NCBI RefSeq assembly: GCF_003054265.1
Contig: NZ_QBKT01000013.1
Coordinates: forward strand, 1-64,000
Length of the DNA: 64,000 nucleotides
Direction of reading: 5' to 3'
DNA from: Kordia periserrulae
Lineage (GTDB): Bacteria > Bacteroidota > Bacteroidia > Flavobacteriales > Flavobacteriaceae
Shown: one piece after another, positions 48,731 to 64,000 of the stretch
How the letters are laid out: every line of letters starts with the position of its first letter
Position numbering within the stretch: the stretch's first letter is position 1
Notes under the pieces: generated by a model
The model's input: the letters and a program-made list of their open reading frames with translations, nothing else
Databases searched by the model: none
What the model was told of the DNA's origin: nothing
Program-made: the position numbers and the translations under genes

Positions 48731-48803
<73 letters not shown>

Positions 48804-48814
48804 CTAGAGTTGAC

Positions 48815-49043: not shown

Positions 49044-49460
49044 TTATTTGTTTAATATCAAATTGTGAGTGATAACCAATTCTCCATTGTCTATTGCAAA
49101 ATAAACATAATCAGCCATATCAAGATCTTCTAGGATATCCTGTATTGTATTTACAGCATACTCTTCAAATAAATAGGATGCCAAATTGACAATAATATTT
49201 CCATTTTTCGTAATATTATTGAAAGCAAACGATATTCCTAATGGCACTAAAAAATCACTACAAAATTTAATGATATCACTTTTTGTGGAATTCCTAGGCA
49301 GAAGTTTCATGTTTAAAATAGTATCATCATAATGAAGTGAGAAGAATCGGATATATCCTTTTTCATCTATGAATGCCTGATTACGGTATATTATAATCTC
49401 TTTAGTAACACCATGACTTAATGTTACGTTCGCTTTTATATTATTTTCATTATATGGCAT
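49044..49460 (-). CDS. Unrecognised small cytoplasmic protein
   Basis: 138 residues, no signal peptide or membrane segment, alternating beta strands then an acidic helix (YAVNTIQDILEDLDMADY). Family not recognised. First gene after the initiator tRNA, transcribed toward it, low GC. Confidence 0.6.
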   Translation of the reverse strand: MPYNENNIKANVTLSHGVTKEIIIYRNQAFIDEKGYIRFFSLHYDDTILNMKLLPRNSTKSDIIKFCSDFLVPLGISFAFNNITKNGNIIVNLASYLFEEYAVNTIQDILEDLDMADYVYFAIDNGELVITHNLILNK

Positions 49461-49553: not shown

Positions 49554-50030
49554 TTAATTTGAAGAGGGATAAAAATTATCGCTACCAGTAAGTATGTGAT
49601 CCCAGTCATAGTTAGTGTTAGGCCTTACTAAATTCCATAAAGTTTTAATTACGGGGTCTCCATTCTCATTTTTTTGACATTTACCAGTCCAGCTAGTAAT
49701 ACTTCCTATACTCCCCCACCTAACAGTAAAGGAAATAACTTTAGCATTATTTGTTTTACACGTTTTGCATAAGTCTTCTGAGTCTACAATTGCATCATTA
49801 ACCCATCCTATTAGTGGATAACTAGAAGAACCTCCTCCTGAAGGAGACGTGTAAGTTCCTGTTATTTTACCTGTGGCTGTATCTAATGTATCAATAGCCA
49901 AGGTAGAACCACTATCATTTTTCCAAGCCCCTATTGGGTTTTCACAGGTTGGTTTTGTATTAGTTTCTTGGCCCCAAGCAGAAATAGAAAACAATAATAT
50001 TAGAACTGAGAGATTTAAAATTTTTTTCAT
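49554..50030 (-). CDS. Secreted avidin/streptavidin-family protein
   Basis: 158 residues with a signal peptide (cleavage near SAWGQ). The mature protein aligns by eye with streptavidin along its whole length. Streptavidin biotin ligands and counterparts here: N23-Asn38, S27-Ser42, Y43-Tyr60, S45-Ser62, W79-Trp105, T90-Thr112, W92-Trp114, W108-Trp132, W120-Trp143, D128-Asp151, with matching spacing (for example GSTL, GTYTSP, SFTVRW, TSWTGK, SDNFYP). Four extra cysteines (29, 88, 91, 118) could form disulfides, as chicken avidin does. Predicted to bind biotin outside the cytoplasm; oligomeric state cannot be told. No biotin-synthesis genes are adjacent. Sits in the accessory block beyond the tRNA. 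Confidence 0.85.
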   Translation of the reverse strand: MKKILNLSVLILLFSISAWGQETNTKPTCENPIGAWKNDSGSTLAIDTLDTATGKITGTYTSPSGGGSSSYPLIGWVNDAIVDSEDLCKTCKTNNAKVISFTVRWGSIGSITSWTGKCQKNENGDPVIKTLWNLVRPNTNYDWDHILTGSDNFYPSSN

Positions 50031-50188: not shown

Positions 50189-50210
50189 AATCTTTTAAAA
50201 ACAAAACGTT

Positions 50211-50669
50211 TTACAATAAACTCTCATCCGCAAAGCTAAAATAACTATCTTCTGTAATGATAAGATGATCGAGGAGTTTGATATCTAGCATTTCACCAGC
50301 ATTTTGTATTTTTTTCGTTATGGCTTTATCTGCACTAGATGGTTTTAATGTTCCGGAAGGGTGATTATGCACCAAAATCATGGCGACTGAATTTGAAAGC
50401 AATGCGGCTTGTAACACTACGCGGATATCAACTAGCGTGCCGGTGATGCTGCCGATACTGATTAGATAGTAACCAGTGATTTTATTTGAGTTGTTGAGAT
50501 AGAGTGCGTACATGTGTTCTCTGTGATTGATTTGATCGAGCGGGAAGAATTTACGAACGCATTCATTGACATGTCTTGAGCTTGATATTTTTTCGAGTTC
50601 AATATTTTTTTGTTTGATGTAATTGAGCTGAATTTCTCCGATTAAGTTTTTTGAATTTGTGATTATCAT
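50211..50669 (-). CDS. RadC-like JAB domain protein
   Basis: 152 residues from the ATG at 50669 (a TTG at 50678 is in frame but less likely). JAMM motif complete: conserved upstream Ala/Ser-rich strand, HNHPSG, then SSAD (HxHx7-8SxxD). RadC family proteins of this short type, without the N-terminal helix-hairpin-helix, are common cargo of Bacteroidota plasmids and integrative elements, with no proven enzymatic role. Supports that this block is mobile. Confidence 0.88.
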   Translation of the reverse strand: MIITNSKNLIGEIQLNYIKQKNIELEKISSSRHVNECVRKFFPLDQINHREHMYALYLNNSNKITGYYLISIGSITGTLVDIRVVLQAALLSNSVAMILVHNHPSGTLKPSSADKAITKKIQNAGEMLDIKLLDHLIITEDSYFSFADESLL

Positions 50670-50861
50670 ATCTGCCAAATTTTAGTGAACAATTATTTGG
50701 CGAAAACAAGCAATCTTGAACAGCGTACATAACACAAGGAAAAGTTTCACTACATGAAACCCTTGTGGTTTTACGCCAAGATTAGCTTTGACAAAGAATT
50801 GTTAAGCGAATTTGGCTACTTGAAGAATAAGCTAGAAATAATTAATGATTGTAGCATATAA

Positions 50862-51386
50862 TCAATGAACTTTTGTGAGAATAATGTCGGTAGGGATATT
50901 AAAGGTTCTATCATCTGTTTCTAATCGCAAATCTTTTTTTTCTTTTATTTTCCAAGTTGCTGTAGGGCTGCATCCTATACAGTTTCCTGTGTTGATAATT
51001 TCCATTGTCAATGAGCCAGAGATGTGAGTATAATTAGGGTTATTAATTGTGTTATCATCAATTCCAGCTTTTAAAAGAGTTCCGTTACTACTTCCATAAA
51101 TTACAGAGCCGTATGTTAATCCATGCCCTATATCTTTGTTTGATTTGTAAATAACAGTAGGGATTCCATTAGAGTTTGTTTGTAACAATGAATAATGTCC
51201 ACCTATATCCCCATCCTCATCTAAAAAAAGTTGAATGCGAAATATTTGATTGCCATTTTCCCACTCCCATGTACCAACAAAGGGTGTGTTAATATTTTGA
51301 CTCACAGTTTTAGTTTGTGCTTTAACGTTTGTAGAAGCACCGCAAGAAATTAATAAAAATATGATTGTGGTTATAAAAAGTCTCAT
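50862..51386 (-). CDS. Lipoprotein of the DUF6705 type
   Basis: 174 residues from the ATG at 51386, giving lipobox FLLISC. The block FVGTWEWENGNQIFRIQL is the hallmark of a group of flavobacterial secreted proteins (DUF6705-like, my recollection). Lipocalin-like beta composition. Starts 12 bases after the stop of the upstream secreted protein, so the two form an operon. Confidence 0.7.
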   Translation of the reverse strand: MRLFITTIIFLLISCGASTNVKAQTKTVSQNINTPFVGTWEWENGNQIFRIQLFLDEDGDIGGHYSLLQTNSNGIPTVIYKSNKDIGHGLTYGSVIYGSSNGTLLKAGIDDNTINNPNYTHISGSLTMEIINTGNCIGCSPTATWKIKEKKDLRLETDDRTFNIPTDIILTKVH

Positions 51387-51397
51387 AATGAATAGTT

Positions 51398-52906
51398 TTA
51401 GATGCAAGGCGTTTCTTTTATTAAGTTTGGTGATGTGTTTTCAAAAGATACCTGTGTGAAATTTTGAAATGAACTGTCAGATTTAAACAAATTAATACCC
51501 ATGTCAGCCTCACTCAGCATTAGTAAAAAAGAGGCAAGTACAGCTTCATTGTTTGTATTGTTAATTGTAATTTGAGTAGTGTTTCCTTCGAAATATTTTT
51601 TATAAAGTTTGTTGTATTTATCTTTTGCAGCAAGCCATTTTTGTGCCAAAACAAAGTCTGATGGAATGGATGGTGTTAATTTATAATAGAAAAAATCTAC
51701 GAATTTACTCATGTCATTAATTGTTAAAGCATAATGTGTGCCTTTTCCTGTTGCTAAAAAAGCAACAAAATTATTATTTATATTATTGTTTTGCGATAGT
51801 CTTGCAAATGATTCTATATCTTCCATAGTAAATATAGAGTAAGTGTCTTGCCCTGTTGTAGTCGCTGTTTCGTAATGCGTATGGATGAATGCCATTATAA
51901 TTACGTTAGCTGGAATGTTTGGTATTTTTATCTTTGGGTCATTTGCCGTTCCCTGTACAGCACCTAATTCATTCATATTCGCAACTTTAAACAATGCTTT
52001 TTCATATGCTTCATCTAAATCATTATTTAAATTATTGGCAGCAACTCTAAAATTTTCATTTTCAGTGATAAAAGTTTTTATTTTATTGCATTCTGCTTCA
52101 ATATTCAGATCACCAATAGGAATAGTTTCTACGGGCTCTTCATCATCTGGCATACTGTCTGGATCATCACCTCCGCTTCCGCCAGCATTGTTATAGTCAT
52201 TCCCATCTGAAGCAGTTCCGCTGCCAGTACAACTCCATATATTGACAGTTTCCCAACCGCATTCTTGTGACGCACGTGAGCAACTAAAAACTGTAATCAT
52301 ACACGGGCAGCTATTATCGCCCCATTCATGATGCTCATTACCACTACATGTTATATAGGAGCAAGTGTAAACCTCTTGCGTGTCGATAAGTTGAGGTGCG
52401 CCGTCCAGACAGGGACTAGTTCCACCGATTCCACTTTTATTTTGTAAAATTACATTTCCACCCAGTTGATTCATAGTCGCCTGTGTATAATCAAGTACTA
52501 TACCATCATTATTGTCGATAATCGGGTACTTGATTAAATATTGATATTCCGTACCATCATCATAAATAAGGAGCATGTAATTTACTAAATTTACATTTGA
52601 TTCTGGGTGCTGAGCTAATAGGGTATATTGAGTGTAATAATTTTTTTCAATTATTTGGATGTTTTCTAAATCAAGCGTAAAGCTTTGTGTTTCCTGAGTT
52701 TTAGATAAATCTTCTTCAATAGCGAGTTTTTGAAGTTTTTTGAAAACATAACTATTGGATGCTCGCAAATGTTCTCCATTAGACATTTTAATAATAAACT
52801 CGGGTTTATTTGGAATTTGCGTAGTTTGGTCATCTATCTCTTGGCATCTAGGCATCAAGAAAATTGTGATAATCGTGATAAAAAAAGTTCTAAAAATGTG
52901 TTTCAT
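51398..52906 (-). CDS. Secreted Cys-rich protein with JAMM-like C-terminal domain
   Basis: 502 residues. Signal/lipoprotein-like N-terminus (LMPRC). Residues about 165-245 hold ten cysteines (CSYITCSGNEHHEWGDNSCPC). A Gly/Asp-rich linker (about 245-270) leads to the C-terminal half with IIMAFIHTHYE and, 18 residues on, FTMEDIESF: an HTH...TxxD pattern close to the JAMM metallo-isopeptidase motif (HxH...SxxD), with Thr replacing Ser. Could be an exported peptidase-like toxin or processing enzyme; domain call is by motif only. Confidence 0.6.
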   Translation of the reverse strand: MKHIFRTFFITIITIFLMPRCQEIDDQTTQIPNKPEFIIKMSNGEHLRASNSYVFKKLQKLAIEEDLSKTQETQSFTLDLENIQIIEKNYYTQYTLLAQHPESNVNLVNYMLLIYDDGTEYQYLIKYPIIDNNDGIVLDYTQATMNQLGGNVILQNKSGIGGTSPCLDGAPQLIDTQEVYTCSYITCSGNEHHEWGDNSCPCMITVFSCSRASQECGWETVNIWSCTGSGTASDGNDYNNAGGSGGDDPDSMPDDEEPVETIPIGDLNIEAECNKIKTFITENENFRVAANNLNNDLDEAYEKALFKVANMNELGAVQGTANDPKIKIPNIPANVIIMAFIHTHYETATTTGQDTYSIFTMEDIESFARLSQNNNINNNFVAFLATGKGTHYALTINDMSKFVDFFYYKLTPSIPSDFVLAQKWLAAKDKYNKLYKKYFEGNTTQITINNTNNEAVLASFLLMLSEADMGINLFKSDSSFQNFTQVSFENTSPNLIKETPCI

Positions 52907-54008: not shown

Positions 54009-57000
54009 TTGAAAAGTATTGCTGCAGATTTTTTTGATAAATTAGGTTTTAGTTTTGGTGAAGATTTAAGACCTGAAAAAATCTTTATTGAAAATGCACC
54101 TGAACTTAACGGAAAAATAATTCATTCCACTTTTTATTACGATAGTCCTAACCAAACAAATACTTCTTTTTATTTTATAAATAAAGCTTTAAGTAAGAAT
54201 GAATTAAAAGAAATTAAAAAGTATGTTTGGAATGAAAATAAAGTTGATTTATTATTTTATTTAAAAAATGATGATTCCTCAAAACTAGTATTACAATACG
54301 CTAAAGTTTCTCCTAAAACAGCAGATAGTGATTCGATATTAGATGTTTTTAAAATATCAAATGAAGAACAAAGCAAAATTGAAAATATCCAACGTTGGAA
54401 ATTTGATAGTGGTCTATTTTGGACAAACTACCAAGAATTTTTAACAAGAAGTAAAAACTTCAAAAGCATTGACAAAGAGTTAGTATCTACACTTGAGGCT
54501 CTTAAAAATCAATTAAATGATGTTCTGACCTTATTTTTAGAAGATGAAGAAAAAAAAGAAGAATATGTTCAAGCCCTAATTGATAGAACTCTATATATAA
54601 AGTATTTAGAAGACAATCATATTATCAACTCCTACTTTTATGAGCATCATTTTAAAGATAGCGAAACTGATTACAAAAAATTGTTATATAATGCAGATAG
54701 TTCAGGCTTAAATAAATTGTTTGAGATTATTCACGACATATTTAATAATGAATTATTCGAGAAACCAACGATACCAGAAAAATACTTAAATACTGCTATT
54801 TGTAGTTTAATACACGACTCTTTAAATCACAACATTGAGGTTGGACAACTACGGCTTTTTGATTTTAGATTTGACATAATACCTGTTGAATTTATTAGTT
54901 ATATCTACGAAATATTTTTAACAGATAAACAAAAGGAAAACGGCATTTTCTATACACCAAAAAAATTGGCTCAACTAATAGTTGATGATGTTATTCCAGA
55001 AAATGAAATAGGTTCAGTATTAGACCCCTCTTGTGGCTCTGGGATGTTCTTAATCACTGCTTTTCAAAGACTTTTAGAAAACAGCAATGAAGATACATTA
55101 ACCGATATTGCTACAAGAATTGAGTTTAGAACTAAACTTTTAGAAGATAACATCTTTGGTATAGAGAAACAGATCACAGCACAAAGATTTACGCTTTTCT
55201 CATTATCATTACAACTATTTAGAGGGTTAGAAAAAACTCAGATAAGAGACTTTATTGCAAAACAATTAAAGGAAAAAGGGCAGGTAGAGTTATTTAAAAA
55301 GCATCGTTTTTTCAAAAACATTCAACACGCCAATTCATTAGAGGTTGAGGCAGATAAAATACCTCACGCAGATAAAACATTTTCATACATAATAGGAAAC
55401 CCACCATTTACAACTAAAAATGTTAGTCCTGATACTCGTAACTTTGTGAAAGAATACAAATCAAATACTCTTAACGAAGAACTGACCACCGAGAAGATAA
55501 TTGGTAGTCTTCAAATATCTCAATGCTTTTTTCTTAAAATTAGGGATTGGAGCAACCCTAATACTAAATTCGGGTTTGTATCTAATAGTTCAAACTTCTA
55601 TAATGAAAACTCAAAAGATTTTCAAAAATTCTTTTATTCTGAATATAAAATAGATAAGATTTATGAACTTTCGAGAGTAAAAAAAATACTGTTTGAAAAT
55701 GCAGTTGAAAGTGTTGTTTCTCTAATTTTCTCCAACAACGATAATAATGCTGTTAACAACCTAATCAAATACTACCTTGTTGATGAGGGCTTATTTTCTA
55801 AAAAACCTTTTGAACTTCTCATTATTCAAGAGGATAAAATAAGAGAAATTTTACAAAGCGATTTACAGACCTGTAAAGCCAACCTTAGAGATTATTTAAT
55901 AGGAAATGACTTTGATTTAGAATTAGTAAAGAAACTAAACCAAAACCCTACTTTGAATGGTTTTTTAAAGAAAACTAAGAGTTATAGAGGATTTGAAATT
56001 TGGGGAGAAGATGCAAGGAAAAAAGAATTTGAACTAACCAAAGAAAATTGGAAAGGATTATCTCCACAGTATAAAAATGAATATCTTCAAAAGTTTATTT
56101 CAAAATACTTTAAGAATGAAAGAGATACTCATTTTGACAAGGCTTATATTAAACCCAAGAACCTACAGCCGTTTGTTATCACTCCAGTTGACAAATACAT
56201 AAGTTCTATAGATAATTTTCATAGACCTCGACCAAAAGAAGTATATACAGGAAATAAGTTATTGCTTAGAAGAATTGGCAGTCATTTAAACTGTGTCTAC
56301 AGTAATAAAGAAGATTATTTTGATTTTTCAGTATATACTATCAAGTTAGCAAACGAAAAAAATTATCCTCTTTTTTGTGCTTTATTAAACTCTTATATCG
56401 TTCAGTTTTTTTTAGATTTTTACTTGAGAAAAAGATTGTTAGACTCTTTCTCCAGAATTGGAGTAGATGACATAAAAGAAATTCCTATACCAAAGGATTT
56501 AGAGAGCGATACAGCCATCAAATTATCTAAAATAAGTGATGACCTAACAAATGGTTTAGTTGATTATAGTGAAGTGAAAAATGAGTTAAACGAACTCGTG
56601 TTTGACCTCTATGAATTATCTTTTTTAGAACGCCAAAGAATTAAAGATTTCTTTATTGAAAAGAAAACAATTAGTGTATCTAAAAATGAAATAGGCGAGT
56701 ATATAGAAACCTTAAATACTTCCATTGAAATCTTTTTAAAGAACTCTGTTAGTTTTGAGACAAAACACAACAAAGGCATAGGATTGGTTGCTATAAAAGT
56801 TAACTTAAACGGTTCATCTAATACTCCTTCCGCCAAGAAAACAGGCTTATATCTTTTAAATGAAATTTTTGAGCAAAACCCTCAAGAAAACTTTTTAGCA
56901 TCTCGTGAAAAAATTTGGGGAAAGGATTGTGTTTACATCATTAAGCAAGACTTGAATATTAATTGGAGTAAAACAAAAGCCTATGAAGATGGGCAAGAGG

Positions 57001-57023
57001 TGTTAAAAAAATTGATGCGTTAA
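54009..57023 (+). CDS. Type IIG-like N6-adenine DNA methylase/restriction protein
   Basis: 1004 residues, TTG start. Residues about 1-110 form an alpha/beta N-terminal domain (NKVDLLFYLKNDDSSKLVLQ), then a helical region (YVQALIDRTLYIKYLEDN) typical of type I HsdM/type IIG enzymes. Methylase core: motif I VLDPSCGSGMFL (about 336-347), motif IV NPPF (about 463-466). A target-recognition region follows (RPRPKEVYTGNKLLLRRIGS ... LNSYIVQFFLDFYLRKRL), and the last 150 residues are extra. I see no clear PD-(D/E)xK site within it, so cleavage may be supplied by the overlapping next gene. Confidence 0.85.
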   Translation: MKSIAADFFDKLGFSFGEDLRPEKIFIENAPELNGKIIHSTFYYDSPNQTNTSFYFINKALSKNELKEIKKYVWNENKVDLLFYLKNDDSSKLVLQYAKVSPKTADSDSILDVFKISNEEQSKIENIQRWKFDSGLFWTNYQEFLTRSKNFKSIDKELVSTLEALKNQLNDVLTLFLEDEEKKEEYVQALIDRTLYIKYLEDNHIINSYFYEHHFKDSETDYKKLLYNADSSGLNKLFEIIHDIFNNELFEKPTIPEKYLNTAICSLIHDSLNHNIEVGQLRLFDFRFDIIPVEFISYIYEIFLTDKQKENGIFYTPKKLAQLIVDDVIPENEIGSVLDPSCGSGMFLITAFQRLLENSNEDTLTDIATRIEFRTKLLEDNIFGIEKQITAQRFTLFSLSLQLFRGLEKTQIRDFIAKQLKEKGQVELFKKHRFFKNIQHANSLEVEADKIPHADKTFSYIIGNPPFTTKNVSPDTRNFVKEYKSNTLNEELTTEKIIGSLQISQCFFLKIRDWSNPNTKFGFVSNSSNFYNENSKDFQKFFYSEYKIDKIYELSRVKKILFENAVESVVSLIFSNNDNNAVNNLIKYYLVDEGLFSKKPFELLIIQEDKIREILQSDLQTCKANLRDYLIGNDFDLELVKKLNQNPTLNGFLKKTKSYRGFEIWGEDARKKEFELTKENWKGLSPQYKNEYLQKFISKYFKNERDTHFDKAYIKPKNLQPFVITPVDKYISSIDNFHRPRPKEVYTGNKLLLRRIGSHLNCVYSNKEDYFDFSVYTIKLANEKNYPLFCALLNSYIVQFFLDFYLRKRLLDSFSRIGVDDIKEIPIPKDLESDTAIKLSKISDDLTNGLVDYSEVKNELNELVFDLYELSFLERQRIKDFFIEKKTISVSKNEIGEYIETLNTSIEIFLKNSVSFETKHNKGIGLVAIKVNLNGSSNTPSAKKTGLYLLNEIFEQNPQENFLASREKIWGKDCVYIIKQDLNINWSKTKAYEDGQEVLKKLMR

Positions 57024-57858: not shown

Positions 57859-58050
57859 TCATAAATTCAATAAATCTTCCCAAACATCATCAAAACTTTT
57901 CTGAAATTCGAACAATTGTTTTTCCAATTCATTGGCGATGCAAACGTAATCATTACCGTCGGGTAGGAGTTTGATTAGGGCTTGCATCAGTCCGTTAATG
58001 TGAATGAGCTGATCTTCCAATTCGTGTAGTCTTTCATTGGCAGATGACAT
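57859..58050 (-). CDS. Small helical protein coupled to the recombinase
   Basis: 63 residues, two heptad-rich helices (NERLHELEDQLIHINGLMQ, NELEKQLFEFQKSFDDVW). Its start overlaps the recombinase 3' end by 17 bases, so it is translated from the same message. Possibly an accessory or excision factor; no family recognised. Confidence 0.6.
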   Translation of the reverse strand: MSSANERLHELEDQLIHINGLMQALIKLLPDGNDYVCIANELEKQLFEFQKSFDDVWEDLLNL

Positions 58051-58639
58051 TTGCGTATTCTCCTTTTTCTATCTCCCATACTCTTTTGGCGATTTCGCGT
58101 TCTTCGCTGCCTATTACATCCAAATAAATGGCTGTGGTTTCCAACCGGCTATGACCAAGCCATTTTTTTACTGTGGTAATTGGTGCTTTATCCGCCGCCC
58201 GCACGGCAAAGCCGTGGCGAAGACCGCGGGCGCAGGCACGAGCGCCCCAAATACCCGCTTCAAGCATGACAGTTTTGACATGGCGTGATGCGCTACGCAA
58301 AGAGAATTGCCAAAGATACTGTGACTTTTTACCCTTAAATTGTACGTAACTCTTCAAATCATTGAGCAAGAAATCAGGTAACGGGATCTCGCGATAGATT
58401 CCACGCTTGCGTTTTTTGAGCGTTTCTAAAACGACAGTCTTGTTTGAAAAATCGAGATTGCTTTCACTCAAATTATGAATTTCAGCGATGCGGGCGCCTG
58501 TATAATACAGCAGCTGACAAAACAGACGAACATGAACAGGACGTTTTTTTGTGCATTCCAAAAAGCGTAAACGCTCGGTTTGATTTAGATACTTTCGCTG
58601 ACCGTTCCGGTCGTGCAATGAAATTGTAGGTTTATACAT
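58034..58639 (-). CDS. Tyrosine recombinase/integrase
   Basis: 201 residues, close to a minimal catalytic domain with a short N-terminal arm-binding part. Catalytic residues: Arg in YYTGARIAEIHNL (about residue 51), RGLRHGFAVRA (Arg of HxxR; the usual first His is Arg here), His in KWLGHSRLETTA and nucleophile Tyr in AIYLDV. The gene is visibly GC-richer than its neighbours (58190-58260), suggesting transfer. It likely integrates or resolves the right-hand element. Promoter-like TATACC lies at 58684-58675 upstream. Confidence 0.88.
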   Translation of the reverse strand: MYKPTISLHDRNGQRKYLNQTERLRFLECTKKRPVHVRLFCQLLYYTGARIAEIHNLSESNLDFSNKTVVLETLKKRKRGIYREIPLPDFLLNDLKSYVQFKGKKSQYLWQFSLRSASRHVKTVMLEAGIWGARACARGLRHGFAVRAADKAPITTVKKWLGHSRLETTAIYLDVIGSEEREIAKRVWEIEKGEYANVICQ

Positions 58640-58923
58640 GATTATTTGGGTTTTAAAAATTTAACTGTCTGATTATTAGGTATATTCAGTCGAATATTCA
58701 AACAAAAAGTGTGTTTTTTCCTGATTTTAACAAAAATATCATCTTAAAGTTGTTCAGATGCCTCTTTTCATGGCTCAAAACATACTGCTGTACGCTCCCA
58801 ATGGCAGACTATACCTAATTTTCGGACAAGTTCAGCCTTATGGAGAAAAAATCTTTTTAAAAACAGCAATCTAGTGTTGTTTTATACGGCTGAATACATA
58901 AATAACCATTAAAATTTAACATT

Positions 58924-59046
58924 ATGGGAGAATGGGAAAAAGTTGGAGAGGTATACCGAAAAAAGAAGAAAAAGAACGATGGATGGGGCGGAATAGTTGT
59001 CGCTATCATTATTCTTTTAATCATCGTTAGTCAGTGTAAATCATAA
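58924..59046 (+). CDS. Small single-span membrane protein
   Basis: 40 residues: a Lys-rich block (RKKKKKN) then one membrane helix GGIVVAIIILLIIVSQC. Ten bases before the next gene. No family recognised; the clean topology supports it being real. Confidence 0.55.
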   Translation: MGEWEKVGEVYRKKKKKNDGWGGIVVAIIILLIIVSQCKS

Positions 59047-59056
59047 AATATCGGTC

Positions 59057-63358: not shown

Positions 63359-64000
63359 CTAAGATTTGTAATCAGGATCCTTATCGTACATCCCCTGAAA
63401 ACGTGAGGCAAAAACTTTAGTGTAAACTTTAGCAATTACTTCATTGAGATTATCTTTATAATATGGTACTTTTTCCAATAAAAGAGGTGGTTTTCCAGCC
63501 CTTAAAATATATTGCCGGTTACTTTCGGCCGATATGTCTAACGCGACTTCACTCTCTGTTCTTAATCTAGCGGCATCATTACCTTTTGAGCCTCTAGCAT
63601 ATGATTTTAATCTTCTGTCTCCTAGTTTTTCACTTATAAATTTAGTAGTCTCTCCATGAGAAACAGCAAAAACCTGTACCGCCCGGCTGTTATTAATAAA
63701 GGTATTGGTGTTTCCTTTGTAAATATCTTTTAATGTTCCTAAATCTTGAATAAATGGCCACATTACTAAATTATAACTAGCCAGTAATCCAAAAGCTTTT
63801 TCGACCTCTTTCATTCTTCCAAGTGAGGTAAACTCATCCATTATCATAAGGATTGGGGTTTTAGATTTACCACCAATAGATATCTGTGCTAATACGAGAT
63901 TAATGAAAAGGCGTATAAATCTGTTATGCGTTTCTAATAATTCTGGCGGTAAGATGAGATAAATAGTGGTTGGATTTTCTTTTAATTCTTTAAAATCAAA
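63359..64000 (-). CDS. Type IV coupling protein (VirD4/TraG), C-terminal part, runs off window
   Basis: At least 213 residues; the frame is open to the window edge. Walker B in KTPILMIMDEFTSLGRMKEV, followed by LLASYNLVMWPFIQDLGTLK and NTFINNSRAVQVFAVSHGET, the conserved C-terminal ATPase segment of the VirD4/TraG family; TTIYLILPPELLETH precedes it. Coupling proteins feed the relaxosome to the type IV secretion channel. The sequence follows the proteobacterial VirD4 pattern. Shows that a conjugative or mobilisable element continues to the right. Confidence 0.88.
   Translation of the reverse strand, partial: FDFKELKENPTTIYLILPPELLETHNRFIRLFINLVLAQISIGGKSKTPILMIMDEFTSLGRMKEVEKAFGLLASYNLVMWPFIQDLGTLKDIYKGNTNTFINNSRAVQVFAVSHGETTKFISEKLGDRRLKSYARGSKGNDAARLRTESEVALDISAESNRQYILRAGKPPLLLEKVPYYKDNLNEVIAKVYTKVFASRFQGMYDKDPDYKS

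What the first reader, a model, noticed from the sequence alone, without database searches (positions are those of the whole stretch)
49554..50030. Intact avidin-family protein in an accessory block of a flavobacterium
The streptavidin biotin-contact residues I can place by eye (Asn, two Ser, Tyr, Thr, four Trp, Asp) are present in order and with matching spacing, behind a signal peptide. Extra cysteines suggest disulfide bridging. Its location beyond a tRNA, among RadC-like and secreted proteins, suggests it is cargo, perhaps depriving competitors of biotin.
Basis: partly seen in the sequence, partly recalled or inferred. Interest (0 to 1): 0.75.

Follow-up and report, generated by a model that had tools for sequence, protein, structure and literature searches.

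The report
Avidin gene on a mobile element
A marine bacterium carries an intact-looking biotin-binding avidin gene as a passenger on a DNA element inserted at a tRNA gene; avidins in this phylum and on mobile DNA are already described, so this is ordinary in kind.

Summary
The 158-aa ORF at 49554-50030(-) is an avidin: Pfam PF01382 at 7.9e-28, 11 of 11 Trp and polar streptavidin contacts checked are identical, and the model has eight strands; the 50 PDB matches listed (of 758) are all avidins.

The "cargo" idea is supported at the DNA level. The gene lies about 0.75 kb inside a 29.6-kb element with integrase, relaxase and coupling protein, bounded by a 47-bp exact repeat of the tRNA-Met 3' end. 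Congener G005 lacks this element at the junction. Congener G006 has a related element at the same tRNA with RadC and recombinase genes but no avidin. Avidin occurs in 1 of 11 genus, 1 of 397 family-sample and 1 of 395 phylum-sample genomes, always this one.

Novelty is low. The genome is probably Kordia periserrulae (4,725,576 bp against 4.73 Mbp published), already named as an avidin carrier by Laitinen et al. 2021, who also report plasmid avidins. The element context is the addition. Biotin binding, assembly and ecological role are untested.

The parts
49554..50030 (-). avidin-family protein, 158 aa, putative signal peptide
   Evidence: PF01382 E 7.9e-28; eight-stranded model, avidin matches
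48731..48804 (+). tRNA-Met (CAT), integration target
   Evidence: ARAGORN
48760..48806 (.). left end repeat of the element, 47 bp; exact copy at contig C13:78329-78375, outside the window
49044..49460 (-). 138-aa ORF between the left end and avidin, function unknown
   Evidence: no Pfam match up to E 0.1
50211..50678 (-). RadC-like JAB-domain protein, shared with the G006 element (86.9% DNA identity over 50208-50815)
   Evidence: PF04002 6.1e-39
50862..51407 (-). DUF6705 protein with putative signal peptide
   Evidence: PF20448 4.8e-10
51398..52906 (-). 502-aa putatively exported protein overlapping the DUF6705 ORF, no Pfam match up to E 0.1
54009..57023 (+). type IIG-like restriction-modification enzyme
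   Evidence: PF02384 2.4e-15; PADLOC REase_MTase_IIG 1.4e-40
58034..58639 (-). short tyrosine recombinase, shared with the G006 element (87.1% DNA identity over 57872-59048)
   Evidence: PF00589 1.4e-19
63359..64000 (-). C-terminal part of a VirD4/TraG coupling protein (804 aa; gene runs to C13:65773)
   Evidence: PF02534 1.6e-67

Best explanation
The gene encodes an exported avidin that binds free biotin tightly, with a tetramer somewhat more likely than a dimer. It is passenger cargo of a 29.6-kb integrative mobilizable element inserted at a tRNA-Met gene of a marine flavobacterium that is probably Kordia periserrulae. The host has its own biotin synthase, so exported avidin would lower free biotin for neighbours, grazers or hosts more than for the producer. 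Shown here: family, conserved site residues, element ends, a congener without the element, a related element with other cargo. Predicted: barrel fold. Inferred: export, assembly, biotin binding, mobility today, biotin deprivation.
For: Pfam Avidin 7.9e-28. PDB sequence matches: 158 distinct sequences at E<=1, best 3.6e-11, the 60 shown being avidins. 11 of 11 Trp and polar contacts identical to streptavidin. Eight strands, mean pLDDT 75.5; the 50 listed of 758 PDB fold matches are avidins. 47-bp exact repeat at both ends of 29,615 bp. Integrase next to the right end, relaxase and coupling protein inside. In G005 the two flanks are contiguous and overlap by the 47 bp. G006 has a related element at the same tRNA with other genes in the place of avidin and no avidin in its genome. 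84 of 72,556 plasmid records carry a relative at E<=1e-5, 53 of the 84 typed conjugative. bioB over cut-off in 11 of 11 genus genomes, this one included.
Against: No binding, export or expression data. Four of seven further site positions differ from streptavidin, three of them in the lid loop. The model rests on 3 sequences; residues 81-94 are below pLDDT 50 and the five models range from 57.4 to 75.5. Ser replaces the Asp equivalent to D128 in both deltaproteobacterial relatives, so not every relative need bind alike. 43% identity to dimeric shwanavidin speaks against a tetramer. A BioY match in the host is below cut-off, so its biotin uptake is not settled. GC of the avidin gene (35.2%) is close to the flank (36.1%; element 34.2%), so composition does not show it to be foreign. 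G005 is not an untouched site: it has a further tRNA-end copy 35 kb on and probably holds another element.
Confidence: 0.8

Rival explanations
1. The avidin binds a biotin-like antibiotic or precursor rather than mainly biotin, protecting the producer, as reported for streptavidin and acidomycin.
For: The abstract of PMC13336041 reports streptavidin binding and neutralising acidomycin. The one Burkholderia glumae plasmid relative whose neighbourhood I read lies next to a polyketide synthase and an MFS transporter gene.
Against: No biosynthetic enzyme was recognised among the element proteins scanned; not every ORF of the element was scanned.
Confidence: 0.1
2. The protein is an avidin-fold protein that no longer binds biotin, like fibropellins.
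For: Avidin-fold proteins without biotin binding exist (fibropellins, discussion of PMC8033661). Lid-loop positions differ from streptavidin.
Against: All 11 checked Trp and polar contacts are kept; frame intact.
Confidence: 0.1
3. The gene is an old chromosomal flavobacterial gene, not mobile cargo.
For: Its GC is near that of the flank.
Against: No match in 10 of 11 genus genomes and 396 of 397 family-sample genomes; it lies inside a repeat-bounded element that G005 lacks at this junction.
Confidence: 0.03

Closest known systems
Putative avidin of Kordia periserrulae, species named in Laitinen et al. 2021 (PMC8033661)
   Different: Their sequence table could not be read here (no look-ups in supplementary files), so identity is inferred. 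The sections I read describe no integrative element for it.
Avidins on Xanthomonas and Burkholderia glumae plasmids
   Same: 45% and 44% identity, same C29/C118 pair, carried on plasmids.
   Different: Lack the 7-residue insert with C88/C91; plasmids rather than an integrated element.
Avidins of two deltaproteobacterial MAGs (L002, L003)
   Same: 47% and 43% identity, shared SYPLIGWVN stretch.
   Different: No C29/C118 pair, no insert, Ser in place of D151.
Shwanavidin (3szh), a dimeric avidin (dimer recalled)
   Same: 43% identity over 101 aligned columns; joins the window protein in the tree at 92/85.
   Different: No Trp at the W143 position; long branch, so its place is unsure.
Chicken avidin, AVR4, xenavidin
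   Same: Best PDB sequence matches, fold, Cys pair.
   Different: 32, 35 and 37% identity over the aligned stretches.
Streptavidin
   Same: 11 of 11 checked Trp and polar contacts.
   Different: 29% identity, no Cys in the aligned chain, four more residues between strands 5 and 6, different lid-loop residues.

Membership tests
Avidin family (PF01382) | Profile match over curated cut-off | tested here: met
   97.6 bits against 24
Avidin family (PF01382) | Eight-stranded barrel like avidin/streptavidin | tested here: met
   8 strands predicted; TM-score by target 0.73-0.81 in the 50 listed PDB matches; a prediction, not a solved structure
Avidin family (PF01382) | Biotin-contact residues | tested here: met
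   11 of 11 Trp and polar positions; of 7 further recalled positions 3 kept, 4 changed
Avidin family (PF01382) | Biotin binding | not testable with these tools
   needs purified protein
NCBIfam streptavidin equivalog NF047623 | Score over curated cut-off | tested here: not met
   30.3 bits against 300; so an avidin, not streptavidin itself
Short dimeric avidins (rhizavidin, shwanavidin) | No Trp at the streptavidin W120 position | tested here: not met
   W143 present; shwanavidin has Pro aligned there. Rhizavidin was not aligned. Against this, 43% identity to shwanavidin.
Tetrameric avidins | Four-chain assembly | not testable with these tools
   W143 is consistent with it; no complex was modelled
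Integrative mobilizable element | Integrase and terminal direct repeats at a tRNA, and a relative lacking the insert | tested here: met
Integrative mobilizable element | Relaxase and coupling protein | tested here: met
   TrwC 1.7e-62 and T4SS-DNA_transf 1.6e-67
Integrative conjugative element | Full type IV secretion set (VirB4 and others) | tested here: inconclusive
   none recognised among the element proteins scanned, but not every ORF was scanned and no VirB4 search was made

The most novel reading that the evidence does not exclude
Avidin is an exchangeable weapon or shield gene that mobile elements pass between phyla: in this marine flavobacterium it fills a cargo slot between the tRNA end and the RadC gene, which a sister element in a congener fills with other genes, while relatives ride plasmids of Xanthomonas and Burkholderia.
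Probability: 0.3. Interest if true: 0.45.

Novelty: already known. Interest (0 to 1): 0.25.

Why it matters
What bacterial avidins are for is an open question. A single avidin gene on a defined element, beside one congener without that element and another with a related element and other cargo, gives a natural comparison of with and without. Beyond that it is one more avidin in a phylum where they are already catalogued.

Tried and rejected
Viral contigs gave 7 pattern matches, none confirmed as a relative, phage records gave no match of 50,697 and PHROGs none for avidin, so a phage origin has no support. Family and phylum samples gave no second avidin; Laitinen et al. name other Bacteroidetes carriers, so such samples miss rare holders. 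A tree of 11 rows has 1 starred branch of 8; it joins the window protein with shwanavidin (92/85), flags shwanavidin as a long branch and warns of long-branch joining, so I draw no clade claim. The idea that vertebrate avidins derive from this group, prompted by the PDB ranking, was dropped: the tree joins animal avidins with streptavidin and tamavidin (94/98, not starred). Redox gating of the biotin site by C88/C91 was considered and set aside: they lie between strands 4 and 5, the barrel end away from biotin in known avidins (recalled). That DUF6705 next door is a second avidin-like barrel was tried: BLASTP best E 8.2, and the model is too poor to use (pLDDT 47.9). RadC is not specific to this element: each of 11 genus genomes has at least two matches. 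No plasmid record of 72,556 matches the 502-aa protein at E<=1e-3. A 16S primer pattern found nothing in the window.

For these I lowered the main confidence from 0.85 to 0.80 and raised the non-binding rival from 0.08 to 0.10.

Full report
Observation. The ORF at 49554-50030(-) encodes 158 aa with no internal stop. Pfam Avidin matches at 7.9e-28, 97.6 bits against a cut-off of 24. It is not the NCBI streptavidin equivalog (30.3 bits against 300). Among solved structures 158 distinct sequences match at E<=1, best 3.6e-11; the 60 shown are avidins or avidin relatives. In an alignment with six PDB chains and four bacterial relatives, 11 of 11 Trp and polar streptavidin contacts that I checked are identical (the contact list and numbering are recalled). 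Of seven further recalled positions, G48, L110 and L124 are kept and A46, V47, N49 and A86 differ.

Structure. AlphaFold2 with 3 aligned sequences gave mean pLDDT 75.5 and pTM 0.67, five models 57.4-75.5, with eight strands (34-37, 43-49, 55-62, 69-79, 97-105, 110-120, 126-137, 143-155). Foldseek against the PDB gave 758 matches at E<=10; the 50 listed are avidins, AVRs, avidin chimeras or mutants, xenavidin or zebavidin, TM-score by target 0.73-0.81. The segment 81-94, which holds C88 and C91, is below pLDDT 50. C88 and C91 lie in a 7-residue insert absent from the four bacterial relatives aligned.

Cysteines and assembly. C29 and C118 correspond to the bridge of chicken avidin (recalled; C29 one column off). 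They are present in the Burkholderia and Xanthomonas plasmid proteins and absent from L002 and L003. W143 aligns with streptavidin W120, the residue that reaches into the neighbouring subunit's site (recalled), which argues against a short dimeric avidin. Against that, the protein is 43% identical to shwanavidin over 101 columns and the tree joins the two at 92/85, with a long-branch warning. Assembly is therefore open.

The element. A search of the tRNA region in the genome found a second exact copy of its 3' end at C13:78329-78375. A script confirmed the longest shared stretch as 47 bp, starting at 48760 and 78329, and a span of 29,615 bp. Just inside the right end is a 463-aa tyrosine integrase with arm-binding, SAM-like and catalytic domains; inside are a TrwC relaxase and a VirD4/TraG coupling protein. 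From the left end, the first ORFs of at least 60 aa inside the element that I take as genes are a 138-aa ORF and then avidin. In G005 the left flank (84% identity) and the right flank (86%) are contiguous and overlap by exactly the 47 bp, and nothing else of C13:46500-80000 matched the 18.1 kb of G005 compared. So G005 lacks this element here; but a further tRNA-end copy 35 kb on suggests that it holds another one. In G006, the closest congener at this place (91% DNA identity), the DNA at the same tRNA shares RadC (86.9%), the short recombinase (87.1%), the 53.1-53.8 kb stretch (93.5%), and more distantly (68-71%) three further stretches including the integrase. It has two other genes, 401 and 323 aa, between tRNA and RadC and no avidin match in the genome. 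A further copy of the tRNA 3' end (78-119 bases aligned or fewer, 86-100% identity) within 40 kb of this tRNA-Met is seen in at least 7 of 11 genus genomes (G000, G002, G003, G004, G005, G006, G009), so the site looks like a hotspot; at most 40 candidates per genome were scored there.

Distribution. PF01382 was found in 1 of 11 genus genomes, 1 of 397 in a family sample and 1 of 395 in a phylum sample, each time only this genome; none of 14 control genomes has it. A pattern search of the collection of 84,980 species genomes, which reaches close relatives only, gave 19 pattern matches of which 2 were confirmed, both deltaproteobacterial MAGs. Plasmids: 84 of 72,556 records at E<=1e-5, 47 Xanthomonas and 37 Burkholderia, 53 typed conjugative; 85 at E<=0.01. 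Phages: no match of 50,697 records.

Host. The genome has 4,725,576 bases in 38 contigs. The published Kordia periserrulae type strain is 4.73 Mbp with 36.2% GC (passage of PMC6767994); the window left of the element has 36.1%. One congener is a single contig of 5,500,985 bases without isocitrate lyase, as published for K. antarctica (passages of PMC7477175). Against certainty: two other congeners, G001 and G008, also lack that family, no named sequence was compared, and the host was matched on size, composition and one gene family only. bioB is over cut-off in 11 of 11 genus genomes; the one BioY match in this genome is below cut-off.

Literature. Laitinen et al. 2021 (PMC8033661: abstract, whole results and the first of two parts of the discussion read) name Kordia periserrulae among Bacteroidetes with putative avidins, report five plasmid cases and association with DNA-recombination genes, and propose defence, anti-grazer or competition roles. 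The abstract of PMC13336041 (abstract and outline only) says that streptavidin binds acidomycin. Four searches of the held open-licence library (25 of 354 papers listed; 20 of 263; 10 of 10,630; 8 of 11) listed no paper whose title or abstract start concerns an avidin in an integrative element of Kordia.

Verdict. A genuine avidin-family gene, probably already catalogued, now placed on a defined integrative element. The most likely mechanism is export and tight biotin binding, with deprivation of competitors, grazers or animal hosts as the likely but untested benefit.

Noticed in passing
window 48731-48806 and equivalents in the genus: The tRNA-Met site looks like an integration hotspot: at least 7 of 11 genus genomes show a further copy of the tRNA 3' end within 40 kb.
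   Followed up: partly
G006:C3:362887-401032 (L018, L019): A sister element of about 37 kb at the same tRNA with different cargo, including 1144-aa and 866-aa proteins, the latter ending in an HNH-like stretch by eye.
   Followed up: partly
window 50211-51407: RadC and DUF6705 genes lie close together here and also at G006:C2 (297-300 kb) and G008:C4 (186-189 kb), perhaps a recurrent accessory pair.
   Followed up: no
window 51398-52906: 502-aa protein without Pfam match contains an HTH...S..D stretch resembling a JAB/JAMM metal motif by eye.
   Followed up: no
C13:78526-79773 (L017:18526-19773): A different tyrosine recombinase gene (PF00589) lies just outside the right end; its DNA follows the tRNA directly in G005, perhaps the start of a second, tandem element.
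   Followed up: partly
G000:C12:122280-122334: Another near copy (96%) of the tRNA-Met 3' end lies on a different contig of the same genome.
   Followed up: no
L025 (Burkholderia glumae plasmid): The avidin gene there sits between a type I polyketide synthase and an MFS transporter gene.
   Followed up: no
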